Assembly: GCA_026991065.1 (NCBI GenBank)
Contig: JALXCG010000429.1
Span: 1-5,987, forward strand
Direction of reading: 5' to 3'
Length of the DNA stretch: 5,987 nt
From: JALXCG01 sp026991065 [NCBI: Gemmatimonadota bacterium]
Lineage (GTDB): Bacteria > GCA-2686955
The notes beneath the pieces were generated by a model, which was not told the DNA's origin, did not search any database, and was given only the letters and a program-made list of their open reading frames with translations. The position numbers and the translations under genes were made by a program. This document shows positions 85-5,810 of the stretch, piece by piece (position 1 is the first letter of the stretch; each line of letters starts with the position of its first letter).

Positions 85-3000
85 TCACGCCACCGGCTCG
101 GGCGCGTAGGAGATCTTCGCCAGCTGCGAATAGAGGCGCCAGCGTGCCTCCGCCGCCTGCTGCGCTTGTTCCAGATAACGCTTCGCATTCTCCGGATTGC
201 TCTTGGTCAGCATCTTGAAGCGGTTCTCGCTGTAGGTAAACTCCTCCACCCGGCGCTTCGGCGCCTTGCTGTCGAGGTGCAGCGGATTCTTGCCCTCCTT
301 GGCCAGCTGCGGATTGTAGCGATAGAGCGGCAGCATGCCGGTTTCAACCAACGTCTTCTGGTGGTCCAACCCCTTGTTCATGGGGAAACCGTGCGCGATG
401 CAGTGGCTGTAGGCGATGATCAGCGACGCACCCGGATACGCTTCCGCCTCGAGAAACGCTTTCACGCACTGATTGTCGTTGGCGCCCATCGCCACCTGCG
501 CGACGTAGATCGAGCCGTAGGTCTGAGCAATCATCCCCAGATCCTTCTTGCCCATCGGCTTGCCGCTAAAAGCGAACTTCGCCACCGCGCCCAGCGGCGT
601 CGCCTTCGACGCCTGCCCGCCGGTGTTGGAGTAGACCTCGGTATCGAGCACCAGCACATTCACATTGCGTCCGGACGCCAGCACATGGTCGAGACCACCA
701 TAGCCGATGTCATAGGCCCAACCGTCGCCCCCGACAATCCACACCGCCTTCTTCACCAGCACGTCGGCAAGACTTACCAGATGCTTCGCCTCTTCCGATG
801 CATCGCCGGCCAGCGCCTCTTTCAGCGCCCGCACCCGCTCCCGCTGCGCCGCAATCTCCTCCTCGTTGTTCTGTTCCGCCTCCAGCAGCCCACTCACCAA
901 AGTGTCGCCCAACTTGCCCGCCAATCGGCGCACCAACTCACGCGCAAACTCATTCTGCTTGTCAAGCGTCAAACGGAACCCGAGGCCGAACTCGGCATTG
1001 TCTTCGAAGAGCGAATTGCACCAGGCCGGACCGCGGCCATCGCCATTCACCGTGTAGGGCGTGGTGGGCAGATTGCCGCCGTAGATCGACGAGCAACCGG
1101 TCGCGTTGGCGATCAGCGCCCGGTCGCCGAAGAGTTGCGTGAGCAACTTCACATAGGGTGTCTCACCACAACCACTGCACGCCCCGGAGAACTCGAAAAG
1201 CGGTTGCAACAACTGGCTCCCCTTCACCGTGTGGATTCGCGGCACGGTGCGCTCCAACTCCGGCAGCCCGAGGAAGAAGTTGAAATTGTCGCGCTCCTGC
1301 GCCCGCAGCGGTGGCTGCGGCGCCATGTCCAGACTCTTGTGCTTCGGATTCTGTTTATCCTTGGCGGGGCAGACCTCCACGCAAAGCTCACACCCGGTAC
1401 AGTCTTCCGGCGCCACCTGCACACAATAGACAGAATTTTCCGGGAACTCCTTGCCCTTGGTCTTGCGCCACTTGAAGCTCTCCGGCGCACCCTCGGTCAA
1501 GGCCGCATCAAAAACCTTGGTGCGAATCGCCGCGTGCGGGCAGACCAGCGCGCACTTGCCGCACTCCACACACAGATCTTCGTCCCAGACCGGGATCTCC
1601 AGCGCAATGTTGCGCTTCTCGTACGCCGCCGTTCCCAGCGGGAAAGTGCCATCCGGCTCGAACGCGCTCACCGGCACATCATCCCCCTTGCCGAGAATGA
1701 TCTTCTCCACCACCGTGCGCACATACTCCGGAGCGTCCTCAGGCACCGTCGGCGGCCGCCCGAAACTGCTGCTGACCGCCGCCGGCACCTCCACCTGATG
1801 CAGATTTTCCAGGGTCATGTCCACCGCGGCGAAGTTCAGCTCCACAATCCGGTCGCCCTTGGCGCCGTAGGTCTTCTTGATCGCCTCCTTGATCGCCGTG
1901 ATCGCCTCGTCGCGCGGCAGCACTCCGCTGATGGCGAAGAAGCAGGTCTGCATGATGGTGTTCACGCGATTGCCCATGCCCGCCTCGCGCGCCACCTTGT
2001 AGGCATCGATCACGTAGAACTTGCACTGCTTCTCAATCAGCCCCGCTTGCACCTCGCGCGGCAGGGTGTCCCACACACTTTCCGGCGGCGCCTGGCTGTT
2101 GAGCAGGAACGTCGCTCCGGGAAGCGCGTGCTCCAACATGTCGAAACGCTCCAGGAACACCGTCTGGTGACAACCGATAAAATTGGCCTTGTCGATCAAG
2201 TAGGCCGACTTGATCGGGTGCTTGCCGAAGCGCACATGCGACACAGTTACCGCGCCTGCCTTCTTCGAATCATAAACAAAGTAGCCCTGCGCGTAATTGT
2301 CGGTTTGGGTGCCGATGATCTTGATTGTGTTCTTGTTCGCCCCGACCGTGCCGTCCGACCCGAGACCGTAGAAGAGCGCCCGGTGCACCCCCTCCTGCTC
2401 GGTCGAGTAGTTCGGGTCGTAGAGCAGGCTGCTGCCCGAAACATCGTCGTTGATGCCGATGGTAAATCCATTTTTCGGCCGCTCCCGCCGCAGCTCGTCG
2501 TAGACCGCCTTCACCATCGGCGGATTGAACTCCTTCGACGACAGCCCATAGCGCCCGCCGATCACCAGCGGGAACGATTCACAGGGCCCCTCACCGGCGG
2601 CGAAAAGTTCGCTCAGCGCAGTGACCACATCCTTATACAGCGGCTCACCGCCGGCGCCGGCCTCCTTGGTGCGGTCAAGCACCGCAATCCGCCTGGTCGT
2701 CCGCGGCAGCGCCCGCGCCAAATGACGCGCCGAGAAAGGCCGATAGAGGCGCACCTCGACCACCCCGACCTTGCGTCCCTCGGCATTCATCCGCGCGCAC
2801 ACCTCTTCCACAGTCTGCGCGCCACAGCCCATGATCACAATCACATCTTCGGCATCGTCCGCGCCATAATAATCGAAAAGGTGATACTTCCGCCCCACCC
2901 GCTCGGCAAAACGATCCATCGTCCGCTGCACCACATCGGGGCACGCCGCATAGAACGGCTCGGCCCGCTCGCGCGCCTGGAAGAACACATCCGGGTTCTG

Positions 3001-3657
3001 CGAACTGCCCCGCAACACCGGCCGGTCCGGCGACAATCCCCGCTGCCGGTGCGCCCGCACCAGATCGTCGCGGATCATGTAGCGCAGATCATCGTCGGTC
3101 AACTCCTCCACTTTCGCCACTTCATGCGACACCCGGAACCCCTCGAAAAAGTGCACAAAGGGAACCCGCGATTCCAGCGTGGCCGCGGTCGCGATCACCG
3201 CCATGTCCCCCACCTCCTGCACCGAGCCGGAAGCGAGCAGCGCGAAACCGGTTGAGCGCACCGCCATGATGTCGCTGTGGTCGCCGAATATGGAGAGCGC
3301 GTGTGTTGCGACCGTGCGCGCCGAAACGTGAAAAACCGTCGGCAACAATTCACCCGCCGCTTTGTACATCGTCGGGATCATCAGCAGCAGCCCCTGCGAC
3401 GCGGTAAAAGTTGTCGTCAGCGAACCGCTCTGCAGCGCCCCGTGAACCGCCCCCGACGCGCCCCCTTCGCTCTGCATCTCCACCACATCCGGAACCGTAC
3501 CCCAGATATTCTTCTGCCCCAGCGCCGACCACTGATCGGCCCACTCCCCCATTCCGGAGGAGGGAGTGATGGGGTAGATCGCGATCACTTCGTTGATGCG
3601 GTGCGCCACGCTGGCGGCAGCTTCGTTGCCGTCAATCGTCAAAACTTTGCGAGTCAT
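85..3657 (-). CDS. nifJ: Pyruvate:ferredoxin (flavodoxin) oxidoreductase, complete single-chain PFOR
   Basis: Cytosolic enzyme that oxidatively decarboxylates pyruvate with CoA to acetyl-CoA and CO2, passing electrons through thiamine diphosphate and three [4Fe-4S] clusters to ferredoxin or flavodoxin. The product is 1190 aa. Residues 1 to about 255 are the pyrimidine-binding domain, with YPITPSS at 28-34 (Thr31), Glu64 and Arg114. A transketolase-C-like domain, a gamma domain and a short linker domain follow. Two ferredoxin motifs lie at Cys696/699/702/706 and Cys753/756/759/763. The TPP domain has CSGCGE at 827-832, Cys855 and Cys1086 for the proximal cluster, GDG at 977-979 and Asn1011. 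Spacings between Cys827, Cys855, Asn1011 and Cys1086 equal those of D. africanus PFOR (Cys812, 840, Asn996, Cys1071, from memory). It ends before that enzyme's C-terminal extension, as many bacterial PFORs do. The second of two tandem ATGs (3660, 3657) was chosen from ribosome-binding-site spacing and because Thr31, Glu64 and Arg114 then match the reference numbering; an 11-codon longer frame from 3693 looks non-native. No partner gene is visible. Confidence 0.97.
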   Translation of the reverse strand: MTRKVLTIDGNEAAASVAHRINEVIAIYPITPSSGMGEWADQWSALGQKNIWGTVPDVVEMQSEGGASGAVHGALQSGSLTTTFTASQGLLLMIPTMYKAAGELLPTVFHVSARTVATHALSIFGDHSDIMAVRSTGFALLASGSVQEVGDMAVIATAATLESRVPFVHFFEGFRVSHEVAKVEELTDDDLRYMIRDDLVRAHRQRGLSPDRPVLRGSSQNPDVFFQARERAEPFYAACPDVVQRTMDRFAERVGRKYHLFDYYGADDAEDVIVIMGCGAQTVEEVCARMNAEGRKVGVVEVRLYRPFSARHLARALPRTTRRIAVLDRTKEAGAGGEPLYKDVVTALSELFAAGEGPCESFPLVIGGRYGLSSKEFNPPMVKAVYDELRRERPKNGFTIGINDDVSGSSLLYDPNYSTEQEGVHRALFYGLGSDGTVGANKNTIKIIGTQTDNYAQGYFVYDSKKAGAVTVSHVRFGKHPIKSAYLIDKANFIGCHQTVFLERFDMLEHALPGATFLLNSQAPPESVWDTLPREVQAGLIEKQCKFYVIDAYKVAREAGMGNRVNTIMQTCFFAISGVLPRDEAITAIKEAIKKTYGAKGDRIVELNFAAVDMTLENLHQVEVPAAVSSSFGRPPTVPEDAPEYVRTVVEKIILGKGDDVPVSAFEPDGTFPLGTAAYEKRNIALEIPVWDEDLCVECGKCALVCPHAAIRTKVFDAALTEGAPESFKWRKTKGKEFPENSVYCVQVAPEDCTGCELCVEVCPAKDKQNPKHKSLDMAPQPPLRAQERDNFNFFLGLPELERTVPRIHTVKGSQLLQPLFEFSGACSGCGETPYVKLLTQLFGDRALIANATGCSSIYGGNLPTTPYTVNGDGRGPAWCNSLFEDNAEFGLGFRLTLDKQNEFARELVRRLAGKLGDTLVSGLLEAEQNNEEEIAAQRERVRALKEALAGDASEEAKHLVSLADVLVKKAVWIVGGDGWAYDIGYGGLDHVLASGRNVNVLVLDTEVYSNTGGQASKATPLGAVAKFAFSGKPMGKKDLGMIAQTYGSIYVAQVAMGANDNQCVKAFLEAEAYPGASLIIAYSHCIAHGFPMNKGLDHQKTLVETGMLPLYRYNPQLAKEGKNPLHLDSKAPKRRVEEFTYSENRFKMLTKSNPENAKRYLEQAQQAAEARWRLYSQLAKISYAPEPVA

Positions 3658-3668: not shown

Positions 3669-3807
3669 GTCGGCCAGGCCTGCCTCTTGCCAATCAAACA
3701 CGCGTCTTTTTATCCACACACCGGTCACCGGCGGCCCGTAACGCCACCGCCGAATGCGCGCCCTCCCGAACAGAGTCCGTTGTCGCGCCGGCGCACCCGC
3801 GGCGATA

Positions 3808-3970
3808 GGAGCCTGTCGCGCATTGGCTTTCGAGCCCCGTGTTCGGGCCTGCTTCGAGATCAAGGCGCTGAGTCCGCCGGAAGGCTGGTTGCCTTTCAAG
3901 GACTTGGCAACGCAGAGATCGGAGCAGGGACGGATGCGGGGCGACGCAAAAACAATGTGCGACAGGCTCC
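3808..3970 (+). mobile_element. MITE-like element, copy 1 (163 bp, 18-bp terminal inverted repeats, TA flanks)
   Basis: The left end GGAGCCTGTCGCGCATTG is matched by the reverse complement of the right end, GGAGCCTGTCGCACATTG, with one mismatch in 18. The bases just outside are TA on both sides (3806-3807 and 3971-3972), as expected for a 2-bp target duplication. A second copy of exactly 163 bp lies at 5480-5642 in the same orientation with 12 substitutions and no indels, about 93% identity. The element is too short for a transposase, so it would be a non-autonomous derivative moved in trans. A TA duplication fits IS630/Tc1-mariner-type or IS5 (IS427-group) transposases, but the ends were not matched to a named IS. 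One frame is stop-free through both copies, yet the substitutions look neutral. It sits about 150 bp upstream of the PFOR start. Confidence 0.85.
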
Positions 3971-3972
3971 TA

Positions 3973-4612
3973 GGTGTGGAGCTTGGAACAGAATCGGCAT
4001 CGATCGCCAAACCGGACCGCACGGCACCAGCAGCCGGCCCCGGGGCATCGATGGGGGAGCGTCTCGCTCGGGGCGCATACTACTCCCCTTGGCCGCCGGA
4101 TCCAAACCCCGCGTAACGAAGCCCGCCGATTGTCCCGCCATCCTGTCAATGGCCTCTATTTTGCAGGCAATTGCACCGATCAAGCGGATCTCCGAATCCG
4201 CCCCGCGTGCCCTCCCATTCGCTCTTCTCTGGCAAGGAGCACCGCCCGGGCCACTCCCCGCGCCTCGCTCATACCATCGGTGCAGTGCGCGCTTCGCACC
4301 GCCCGGATCAGGCCGAGCCCGCGGATCCGCCCAGCGCCGATGCCCTCGGCTCCACCGCGCGCCCTCCCTCTGCTCCCGCGCCTCCTCTGGAAGGCGAAAG
4401 CTCTCCGCGCCCCACCGCCGCCGACCGCAGCACGGCACAGCGCACAACGCACAATGCGGCCACCGGAATCCCCTGCCTGGTTTTGCAACTCCGTTCCAGC
4501 ACGCCGGTTCCCGCTCTTCTCCAAGGTCAGCAGAGTGCCCGATGCCAGGCCATAAAGGCCCGGGAGGCCATCGCGCCTCAATCGCGCCGCGGGGAGCCAG
4601 CCCCACACCACA
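3973..4612. other. About 640 bp with no supported gene
   Basis: Several long frames are open on both strands, but they are arginine-, proline- and alanine-rich, show no recognisable domain, lack credible ribosome binding sites and overlap one another, as GC-rich non-coding DNA does. Two short inverted repeats are visible: a 6-bp stem with 6-nt loop at 4184-4201 (GCGGAT/ATCCGC) and an imperfect palindrome at 4278-4301 (CGGTGC/GCACCG). Neither is followed by a T tract, so neither is called a terminator. The stretch may include eroded 5' sequence of the CotH relic to its right, but no residual similarity was recognised. Confidence 0.5.
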
Positions 4613-5475
4613 GACGACGACTCAGATGCGGGCAACGGAGACCATGTCGCCGCCACTTTTCGCTATCGGGAGCGCGACTACCCCAACGTCGGCGTGCGCT
4701 TCAGAGGAGAGTTGTCGGTGTGGGGGTCCGAGCGAAAAAAGCTCCTCAAGATCAAATTCGACGCACTGGTCCCGGACCAGCGCTTTTTCGGTCTAAAGAA
4801 GCTGGGCCTGAGCAACGGTTTCCGTGACCCCACAATGCTCCGGGAGAAGCTCTTTTGCGACGCGGTGATAAGTTGCTGCCGGCGGGCCGGGCGAGCTTCG
4901 CCAAGCTCTCGATCAATGGCGACCATTGGGGGCTCTCTCTGAATGTTGAGCAGGTCGACAAGATCTTTCTCCGGCAACAGTTTGGCAAGAGTGAAGATGG
5001 CAACCTGTTCAAGGGCGATCCGCAGGGGTGGCTGGTGTGGGTGGGGCTGGAGCAGCAAAACTACTACGACAAATATGAGCCAAGAACCAACGAAAGCGCC
5101 AACGATTGGTCCGATCTGCTGGACCTGATCGACCAGGTGGACAACTCCGCTCTGCAAGCTTTTCCCGACACAGTGGAGGCGGCGCTCCATCTGCGCACCT
5201 TTCTTTTTCGCTCCGCCTTCTACAATCTCTACATCTCACTCGACAGCTGTGTGGGGGTGGAACACTATTTCCATCTGTACCATCGCGACGACAGCGACCG
5301 TTTCACCATGCTGCCATAGGACGGCAGTGAGGCGTTCGCCGCCTGCCCGGCGTATGCGTGGCCCGATCTGCTCGACCTGCCGCTCTTGTGGCAACGGCCG
5401 GTAGAGGAGGCGCCTCGCCCGCTGGTCAACCGGGCGTTCGACATTTCAACATGCGGTTCACCAGCAGCGCTGTAG
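4613..5475 (+). pseudogene. Decayed CotH-family protein kinase gene (5' and 3' truncated, frameshift, internal amber)
   Basis: CotH-family proteins are atypical kinases, known from spore coats and common as secreted or surface proteins in several phyla. Family-typical segments appear in order on the plus strand: YPNVGVRFRGELS (from 4679), KKLLKIKFD, LGLSNGFRDPTMLRE (around 4811), then in another frame GRASFAKLSING, NVEQVDK (4942-4962), ANDWSDLLDLIDQVD (around 5101) and YISLDS. The frame changes between about 4862 and 4885, consistent with loss of 1 (or 4) nt. TAG at 5317-5319 falls where the family has the Trp of its LPWD motif; the same frame then stays open for 51 codons through LLDLPLLW and PLVNR to TAG at 5473. 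The signal peptide and N-terminal strand are missing (the first frame opens only at 4556, without a plausible start), and the C-terminal part after PLVNR is lost. A Tyr at 5266 replaces the Asn usual in GxxHNY. The family call is from remembered motifs; the left boundary is approximate. Confidence 0.8.
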
Positions 5476-5479
5476 TCAA

Positions 5480-5642
5480 GGAGCCTGTCGCGCATTGGCT
5501 TTCGAGCCCCATATTCGGGCCTGCTTCGAGATCAAGGCGCTGAGTCCGCAGGAAGGCTGGTTGCCTTTCAAGGACTTAGCAACGCAGAGATCGGAGCAGG
5601 AACGAGTGCGGGGCGACGTGAAGACAATGCGCGACACGCTCC
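5480..5642 (+). mobile_element. MITE-like element, copy 2 (163 bp, 18-bp terminal inverted repeats, AA flanks)
   Basis: Same length and orientation as the copy at 3808-3970, with 12 substitutions of which 10 are transitions, and no indels. The left end is GGAGCCTGTCGCGCATTG; the reverse complement of the right end is GGAGCGTGTCGCGCATTG, one mismatch in 18. The immediate flanks are AA on both sides (5478-5479 and 5643-5644), again a 2-bp direct repeat but not TA, so either the target is not strictly TA or the duplication has mutated. The element starts 4 nt after the last in-frame stop of the CotH relic, and no CotH sequence resumes beyond it, so it did not simply split that gene. Confidence 0.85.
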
Positions 5643-5810
5643 AAGCCGATCCGGCAATTCGCCACCAAGGCCTCACCTGCGTCGTTGGCCGCGGGCGCTC
5701 AGCCACCCGGAGCAGAATTGCGGAATCGGGAGAAGGAGACCGGGCAGTGCTGGCTTCCTTGCGGGAATGGGTTCCTCCGCGCAATCCACGATCGGCAGTG
5801 GCGCAACCGT
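5643..5810. other. Spacer between the second MITE and the convergent Uma2-like gene end
   Basis: This 168-bp stretch separates the 3' side of the CotH relic and MITE copy 2 from the stop codon of the minus-strand gene at the right edge. A frame running out of the MITE stays open across it on the plus strand, but it has no recognisable protein and no start with a ribosome binding site. No clear hairpin followed by T residues, and hence no terminator, was found. Confidence 0.4.

What the first reader, a model, noticed from the sequence alone, without database searches (positions are those of the whole stretch)
3808..5642. A pair of 163-bp MITEs with 18-bp terminal inverted repeats and 2-bp target duplications
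Two direct copies (3808-3970, 5480-5642) have identical length, about 93% identity, one-mismatch 18-bp inverted termini and matching dinucleotides immediately outside (TA/TA and AA/AA). This combination marks real element boundaries rather than a generic repeat. Ten of the 12 differences are transitions and there are no indels, suggesting modest age or upkeep by repeated mobilisation. I could not match the ends to a named IS, so this may be an undescribed MITE family.
Basis: partly seen in the sequence, partly recalled or inferred. Interest (0 to 1): 0.65.

Follow-up and report, generated by a model that had tools for sequence, protein, structure and literature searches.

The report
Hairpin mobile repeat landing on stop codons
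The two 163-base repeats are copies of a small parasitic DNA element, present dozens of times in this bacterium and in a cousin genus, that folds end to end into one long hairpin and sometimes sits exactly on a gene's stop codon without changing the protein; it is a new family of a known kind of element.

Summary
Both copies are 163 bp, differ at 12 sites (10 transitions), and have 18-bp inverted ends with one mismatch each; flanks are TA/TA and AA/AA. The family is much larger: I aligned 52 distinct full-length copies, 42 from the window's genome and 10 from a second genus of the same family, about 83-86% identical; 39 of 52 are exactly 163 bp. The 96 other genomes searched had no match. Left/right dinucleotides agree in 26 of 54 copies (16.0 expected, permutation p = 0.00025), most often TA, flanked by C and G. 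The whole element is one imperfect rod hairpin with strong covariation: 91 doubly changed pair cells against 21.6 in shuffles, 0 of 500 reaching it. Target TA plus the element's first G rebuilds TAG, so 22 of 108 ends coincide exactly with a called neighbouring gene's stop. No transposase or IS with these ends was found in two incomplete genomes. Best reading: an undescribed ERIC/RUP-like non-autonomous MITE moved in trans by an unidentified transposase. Stop-codon overlap and compensatory stems have precedents (PMC2674063), so novelty is modest.

The parts
3806..3807 (.). left target-duplication dinucleotide TA of copy 1
   Evidence: sequence; flank table
3808..3970 (+). copy 1 of the 163-bp hairpin MITE
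   Evidence: 40 matching places in the own genome
3808..3825 (+). left terminal inverted repeat of copy 1 (GGAGCCTGTCGCGCATTG)
3953..3970 (-). right terminal inverted repeat of copy 1, 1 mismatch of 18
3971..3972 (.). right target-duplication dinucleotide TA of copy 1, followed by G (CTAG together with the element's last C)
5478..5479 (.). left target-duplication dinucleotide AA of copy 2, preceded by C
5480..5642 (+). copy 2 of the 163-bp hairpin MITE, 92.6% identical to copy 1
5480..5497 (+). left terminal inverted repeat of copy 2
5625..5642 (-). right terminal inverted repeat of copy 2, 1 mismatch of 18 (at alignment pair 6-167 it reads C opposite C; five other copies read G-C there)
5643..5644 (.). 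right target-duplication dinucleotide AA of copy 2, followed by G

Best explanation
It is a non-autonomous miniature transposable element. Its ends are cut and pasted, or copied, in trans by a transposase not found in either assembly, which opens C-TA-G (less often C-CA-G, C-TG-G, C-TC-G or C-AA-G) with a 2-bp stagger and so duplicates the central dinucleotide (the duplication is shown statistically; the enzyme is inferred). Because the element begins with G and ends with C, insertion into CTAG rebuilds CTAG at both ends: a TAG stop codon at the target survives insertion from either strand, and new targets for tandem insertion appear (sequence shown; consequence inferred). Together with the scarcity of CTAG elsewhere in this DNA, this explains why a sizeable minority of copies sit exactly on stop codons. 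The two halves of the element pair along its whole length, and pairing has been kept by matched changes on both arms within and between genera (shown). The cause is inferred to be a mixture of selection on folded copies that go on to propagate and template-switch copying of one arm from the other.
For: Copy number and end count. Dinucleotide agreement in 26 of 54 copies against 16.0 expected, permutation p = 0.00025; non-TA agreement 9 against 3.0, p = 0.00055; C at -3 in 43 of 54 and G at +3 in 49 of 54. The 28 full-length copies whose flanks differ are more diverged from their genus consensus than the 24 whose flanks agree (mean 12.4 against 7.3 differences, p = 0.023), as expected if duplications decay with age. 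A 96.7% pairing rate, 19 of 49 pairs with double changes, 91 doubly changed cells against 21.6 shuffled, and a drop to 37-46% paired when partners are slid by 1-3 columns. 15 same-branch Watson-Crick to Watson-Crick double changes against 2.9 simulated, maximum 9 in 1000; on single-copy branches alone 8 against 2.5, maximum 9. 22 of 108 ends overlap a called gene's stop by exactly one base. TAG ends closing an open frame of 200 or more codons: 19 of 51, against 35 of 256 CTAG half-sites elsewhere in the loci, p = 0.0002; with 100 or more codons 22 of 51 against 67 of 256, p = 0.018. CTAG is rare: 128 sites outside the elements against about 972 expected from base composition. Two shortened copies (132 and 127 bp) keep both ends with equal flanks CA/CA and TC/TC.
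Against: No autonomous element or matching transposase was found. 28 of 54 copies have unequal flanks. No empty site was compared. The gene caller was my own and unvalidated. Transposition itself is not shown; all of this is inference from sequence.
Confidence: 0.82

Rival explanations
1. It is a structured RNA gene or cis-acting mRNA element (for example a 3'-end stabiliser or RNase III site) kept by selection at each site, and its spread is incidental.
For: Strong covariation and a more stable plus-strand fold (mean MFE -100.7 against -76.1 kcal/mol for the minus strand, plus lower in 52 of 52 related copies). Placement directly behind genes at 22 of 108 ends. Reported precedents for repeats behind genes acting on mRNA (PMC2674063 and PMC2229807, passages).
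Against: Stop-codon placements show no orientation preference: 10 at left ends, 12 at right ends. Single copies decay: single-copy branches show 61 changes from a Watson-Crick pair to G-U, 50 to A-C and 54 to other mismatches. By eye, no run of T follows the element in the 54 flanks, so it does not look like an intrinsic terminator. No Rfam match on the element.
Confidence: 0.1
2. The covariation has no selective cause: template switching inside the quasi-palindrome copies one arm onto the other.
For: Double changes on single-copy branches include transversion pairs in the outer stem (C-G to G-C in L019 and L024, U-A to G-C in L035, G-C to U-A in L032) that cannot pass through a G-U step; the states in L019, L032 and L035 are private, that of L024 is shared with L010, L026, L029 and L031. 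The process is described in PMC8794818 (only the start of the abstract seen in a search listing).
Against: Template switching makes Watson-Crick pairs, yet many changes are to G-U. In a register that treats both strands alike, internal branches show 21 to G-U and 5 to A-C (p = 0.0025), all branches 82 and 55 (p = 0.026). The excess is weaker in a tree-free count (22 against 15 shared states, p = 0.32) and at consensus level (6 G-T and 3 A-C oppositions in each genus), so the point is open.
Confidence: 0.35
3. It belongs to the IS630/Tc1-mariner group: a TA-duplicating DDE transposase moves it.
For: TA is the commonest duplication (17 of 26). RUP is proposed to be moved by IS630-Spn1 (PMC2229807, passages seen). 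A CTAG preference for IS630 is recalled, not tested.
Against: 9 of 26 equal flanks are not TA. No PF13358 match in the window's own genome (G001 was not searched with it).
Confidence: 0.35
4. It belongs to the IS5 family (IS427/IS1301-like group): 2-bp duplication at YTAG-like targets.
For: C-NN-G targets with 2-bp duplications that need not be TA. The IS1301 and IS427 target habits are recalled; a search for them gave nothing I read.
Against: No PF13340 or PF13586 in either genome. The PF01609 hits (1 in G000, 2 in G001) have no matching ends in the 3 kb read around them.
Confidence: 0.3

Closest known systems
ERIC / IRU / RU-1 and RU-2 (enterobacteria)
   Same: 127 and 168 bp, inverted ends, TA duplication, long stem-loop, open frames, occasional in-frame fusion to genes (PMC2759123 and PMC2229807, passages seen). 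Bacterial MITEs are reported to lie directly downstream of genes or to overlap terminal codons (PMC2674063, passages seen).
   Different: No sequence match in 5,426 E. coli genomes at blastn E <= 0.01. Here the target is C-NN-G and the ends rebuild TAG. The word 'compensatory' occurs 0 times in the main texts of PMC2759123 and PMC2229807.
RUP (Streptococcus pneumoniae)
   Same: 107 bp, 108 copies, TA target, non-autonomous (PMC2229807, passages seen).
   Different: RUP has a proposed partner IS (IS630-Spn1); none was found here. RUP has stops in all six frames; here four frames are open in copy 1 and three in copy 2, and f2 and r2 are open in 45 and 43 of 52 copies.
Correia / NEMIS (Neisseria)
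   Same: Long hairpin MITE with inverted ends, TSD and TA termini (PMC2229807, passages seen).
   Different: Other hosts; no sequence comparison was made. RNase III processing was not tested here.
Borrelia plasmid intergenic repeats (PMC2674063)
   Same: Repeats with inverted arms, compensatory changes including transversion pairs in the stems, near or overlapping gene ends (passages seen).
   Different: Short stems (sequence #2: 11-13 bp), on plasmids, no target duplication mentioned in the passages seen.
Rickettsia palindromic elements
   Same: A small repeat that can lie in frame inside genes (PMC10969869, passages); L012 reads through a GNAT gene in frame.
   Different: One convincing in-gene case among 7 called 'inside'; 47 of 54 copies were not called inside a gene.
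REP / RAYT systems
   Same: Palindromic, extragenic, many copies (recalled).
   Different: No Y1 transposase (PF01797) in the window's genome, 1 in G001; a 2-bp duplication is present; each 30-base end alone folds only weakly (-5.8 and -4.2 kcal/mol).

Membership tests
MITE (general) | short, multi-copy, no transposase gene | tested here: met
   163 bp; 40 distinct places in own genome, 152 end matches at up to 3 mismatches
MITE (general) | terminal inverted repeats at fixed boundaries | tested here: met
   18 bp with 1 mismatch; at most 0.44 bits past the 3 flanking bases
MITE (general) | target-site duplication | tested here: met
   26 of 54 equal dinucleotides, p = 0.00025
MITE (general) | ends shared with an autonomous IS | tested here: inconclusive
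   none found in two genomes about 84% complete; only about 100 of 152 own-genome end matches were printed
IS630/Tc1-mariner derivative | strict TA duplication | tested here: not met
   9 of 26 equal flanks are CA, TC, TG or AA
IS630/Tc1-mariner derivative | DDE_3 transposase in the genome | tested here: inconclusive
   0 matches in own genome, which is 84% complete; G001 not searched
IS5 family (IS427-like) derivative | IS5-type transposase with the same ends | tested here: inconclusive
   PF13340 and PF13586 gave no match in G000 or G001; PF01609 loci have other ends
ERIC | sequence similarity to ERIC | tested here: not met
   no blastn match at E <= 0.01 in 5,426 E. coli genomes; E. coli is reported to carry about 30 ERIC copies (PMC10969869, passage)
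REP/RAYT | Y1 (RAYT) transposase in the genome | tested here: not met
   PF01797: 0 in G000, 1 in G001

The most novel reading that the evidence does not exclude
The folded plus strand (RNA or single-stranded DNA) is itself needed for the element to multiply: lineages that leave descendants keep pairing with strand-specific wobble, while inserted copies drift. The MITE would then be mobilised through a folded single strand and not only through its double-stranded ends.
Probability: 0.15. Interest if true: 0.72.

Novelty: new member of a known kind. Interest (0 to 1): 0.37.

Why it matters
A 2007 review of these hairpin repeats states that movement by transposases had no experimental support (PMC2229807, passage seen); I did not search for later tests. 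A family with dozens of comparable copies in two genera, sharp ends, measurable arm-to-arm covariation and a target that spares stop codons makes two questions testable from sequence: whether the hairpin is needed for amplification, and how a mobile element can insert harmlessly in a compact genome. If only ordinary, it still adds an ERIC-like family in a phylum for which two genomes are held.

Tried and rejected
Partner IS by transposase families PF13358, PF01609, PF13340, PF13586, PF01797: none fits. Partner IS by a contig that breaks 20 bases past an end with a different interior (L049): that interior occurs once in G000 and not in G001. Named relatives by exact end pattern in genome contigs: 5 records, none with the whole element; best matches are 18-20 bases or a 44-base partial at 79.5%, which I estimate (not computed in a call) to be near chance. 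Viral contigs with an internal 23-mer: 0. Plasmids, phages and E. coli: 0.

Coding function: no frame is open in every copy; best are f2 (36 of 42 and 9 of 10) and r2 (35 of 42 and 8 of 10), while f0 is open in 29 of 42 and 1 of 10, so a conserved peptide is not supported; codon-position substitution was not tested. 'Inside gene' calls: 6 of the 7 were sent to Pfam (L006 was not). In L010, L013, L007 and the first L069 ORF the domain lies wholly to one side of the element, so the ORF start is probably overextended; the second L069 ORF has no Pfam match; L012 is the one convincing case.

Strand-specific pairing: on the RNAalifold pairs G-U exceeds A-C 66 to 28, but that register favours G-U by construction; in a strand-neutral register it is 82 to 55; bootstrap trees gave p < 0.05 for the internal/terminal contrast in 27 of 40, with the worst at 0.86; tree-free shared states 22 to 15, p = 0.32, single-copy states 15 to 19. 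Reported as suggestive only.

Rows dropped: one search kept copies that match at least query positions 4-160 and lie at least 3 bases inside the locus, so partial copies, copies at contig ends and L030 (diverged first 7 bases) were left out; repeat fetches L001, L005, L015 and the named records L080-L084 were excluded. Of 54 kept, the two shortened copies were left out of the alignment (52) but used in the flank and context counts (54).

On reading passages of PMC2674063 both turned out to have precedents; I lowered interest from 0.42 to 0.37 for that reason.

Full report
Observation. The pair is real and as described: 163 bp each, no indels, 12 differences of which 10 are transitions, 18-bp inverted ends with one mismatch, flanks TA/TA and AA/AA.

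Family size. In the window's own genome (G000: 4.14 Mb, 902 contigs, 83.8% complete) 40 distinct places match at E <= 1e-3; only 40 of 119 first-look candidates were scored, so this is a lower bound. The 18-mer end has 80 + 72 matches at up to 3 mismatches against 1 + 2 for the control (about 100 of the 152 were printed). Reading 31 further regions around end matches gave more copies, shortened copies, and decayed single ends. Of 98 genomes searched, counting the own genome, only G000 and G001 (same family, other genus, 84% complete) have it. These two are all that is held for the phylum, 2 of 2 with matches. G001 copies are about 83-86% identical to window copy 1. Lengths are 163 in 31 of 42 G000 copies and 8 of 10 G001 copies, the rest 161-166. 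In G001, 13 of 40 listed places begin at base 1 of a contig, so the element breaks assemblies and true numbers are probably higher. No match in plasmids, phages or E. coli genomes, none in viral contigs (exact 23-mer), and no Rfam match on it. The lineage could not be named with the tools used.

Ends and target. For 54 copies (52 full, 2 shortened) the left and right dinucleotides agree in 26: TA 17, CA 4, TC 2, TG 2, AA 1. Independence predicts 16.0 (permutation p = 0.00025); without TA it is 9 against 3.0 (p = 0.00055). Position -3 is C in 43 of 54 and +3 is G in 49 of 54; beyond that there is little (maximum 0.44 bits). The 28 full copies with unequal flanks are more diverged than the 24 with equal flanks. 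So the target is C-NN-G, most often C-TA-G, with a 2-bp duplication that decays. The window's copy 1 has A, not C, at -3. As the element starts with G and ends with C, insertion rebuilds CTAG: 20 left and 23 right ends of 54 read CTAG, and 10 copies have both. In L040, L026 and L085 another element end abuts with a 2-base spacer at 0, 2 and 3 mismatches of 12; L008 and L027 reach 4 mismatches and are doubtful, and L075 was flagged only because its contig ends there. Tandem use of the rebuilt target predicts such contacts.

Stop codons. With a simple, unvalidated codon-usage gene caller trained on 136 long ORFs of the fetched loci, 22 of 108 ends overlap the neighbouring gene's stop by exactly 1 base: TA from the flank plus the element's outer base (G in 21, and at the right end of L023 an A, giving TAA). 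There are 10 left ends and 12 right ends; L018, L023 and L024 have it at both ends, between convergent genes. One further such end (L006) fell in the 'inside' class and is not counted. Caller-free check: 22 of 51 TAG ends close an open frame of 100 or more codons, against 67 of 256 CTAG half-sites outside elements (p = 0.018); for 200 or more codons, 19 of 51 against 35 of 256 (p = 0.0002); both ends at once in 3 copies, against 4 of 128 background sites. CTAG is rare here (128 sites outside elements in 285 kb, about 972 expected from base composition) and about a quarter of background half-sites already close a frame of 100 or more codons. The simplest account is target choice plus survival of harmless insertions; active seeking of stop codons is not needed. 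The window's two copies are not on called stop codons: copy 1 lies 150 bp upstream of a pyruvate:ferredoxin oxidoreductase gene and copy 2 lies 160 bp past a CotH fragment. MITEs overlapping terminal codons are already reported in other bacteria (PMC2674063, passages).

Structure. The G000 consensus of 36 rows folds end to end as one rod: -115.5 kcal/mol for the plus strand, -89.7 for the minus. Plus is lower in 52 of 52 copies, which are related and so not independent. On the 52-row alignment, RNAalifold gives 49 pairs. 96.7% of cells pair, 19 pairs show double changes, and there are 91 doubly changed cells against 21.6 shuffled (0 of 500); sliding partners by 1-3 columns drops pairing to 37-46%. 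The structure was derived from the same alignment, so the slide control on cells paired is biased in its favour, and shuffles ignore relatedness. The branch count is the stronger evidence: 15 same-branch Watson-Crick to Watson-Crick double changes against 2.9 simulated (maximum 9 of 1000); on single-copy branches 8 against 2.5 (maximum 9). Five of these separate the genera (columns 11-163, 18-156, 32-140, 43-129, 44-128); others fall on single-copy branches in L019, L024, L032, L035, L043, L058 and L059.

Why pairing is kept. Using a register that treats both DNA strands alike, internal branches show 21 changes from a Watson-Crick pair to G-U, 5 to A-C and 5 to mismatch; single-copy branches show 61, 50 and 54 (Fisher p = 0.0025). 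This suggests that lineages which multiply keep a folded plus strand while inserted copies decay. It is not firm: bootstrap trees gave p < 0.05 in 27 of 40, a tree-free count of shared states gave G-U 22 against A-C 15 (p = 0.32), and the consensus of each genus has 6 G-T against 3 A-C oppositions. Transversion pairs in the outer stem on single-copy branches point to template switching as a second cause.

Mobility. PF13358 (own genome only), PF13340 and PF13586 (both genomes) gave no match; PF01609 gave 1 in G000 and 2 in G001 without these ends nearby; PF01797 gave 0 in G000 and 1 in G001. Among the 87 G001 end matches I see no inward-facing pair 0.2-3 kb apart. In the fetched G000 loci such pairs are made only by neighbouring complete copies, as in the window, L040 and L069; whether those move as composites was not tested. 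Both genomes are incomplete, so a partner may exist unseen.

Comparison. It works like ERIC/RU-1, RU-2, RUP and Correia elements (PMC2759123, PMC2229807 and PMC10969869: passages seen). It is not ERIC by sequence. Compensatory stem changes, transversions included, and overlap with terminal codons are reported for Borrelia plasmid repeats, the latter also for MITEs in general (PMC2674063: passages seen). My other searches listed nothing closer by title or abstract start; those papers were not read in full and most subscription journals are not held. Verdict: a new family of a known kind, with unusually clear covariation across two genera and a stop-sparing CTAG target.

Noticed in passing
window 4694-5319: CotH kinase (PF08757) remnants in two overlapping frames, profile positions 2-56 and 64-208 of 322: a broken, truncated gene lying between the two MITE copies.
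   Followed up: partly
window 85-3657, minus strand: Pyruvate:ferredoxin oxidoreductase, 1190 aa, with POR_N, POR, EKR, Fer4 and TPP_enzyme_C matches.
   Followed up: partly
L012 603-1871: GNAT acetyltransferase ORF read through a reversed copy in frame (163 + 2 = 165 bases = 55 codons); the Pfam match ends at residue 295, just before the element.
   Followed up: partly
L108 2327-2788: An ORF translation with a repeated peptide motif (FNPFFVREALS-like) that may be a CRISPR array, near a DDE transposase gene; repeats not measured.
   Followed up: no
L009, L027, L044, L079, L089: Called neighbouring genes start inside the element's end (overlap of 16 bases): the element may donate a start codon, or the caller overextends.
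   Followed up: no
L046, L047: One-ended copies break off at or near a CTA that may be the stop codon of the adjoining gene, read on the other strand (seen by eye).
   Followed up: no
G000 and G001 loci: CTAG is strongly depleted in this DNA: 128 sites outside elements in 285 kb against about 972 expected from base composition.
   Followed up: partly
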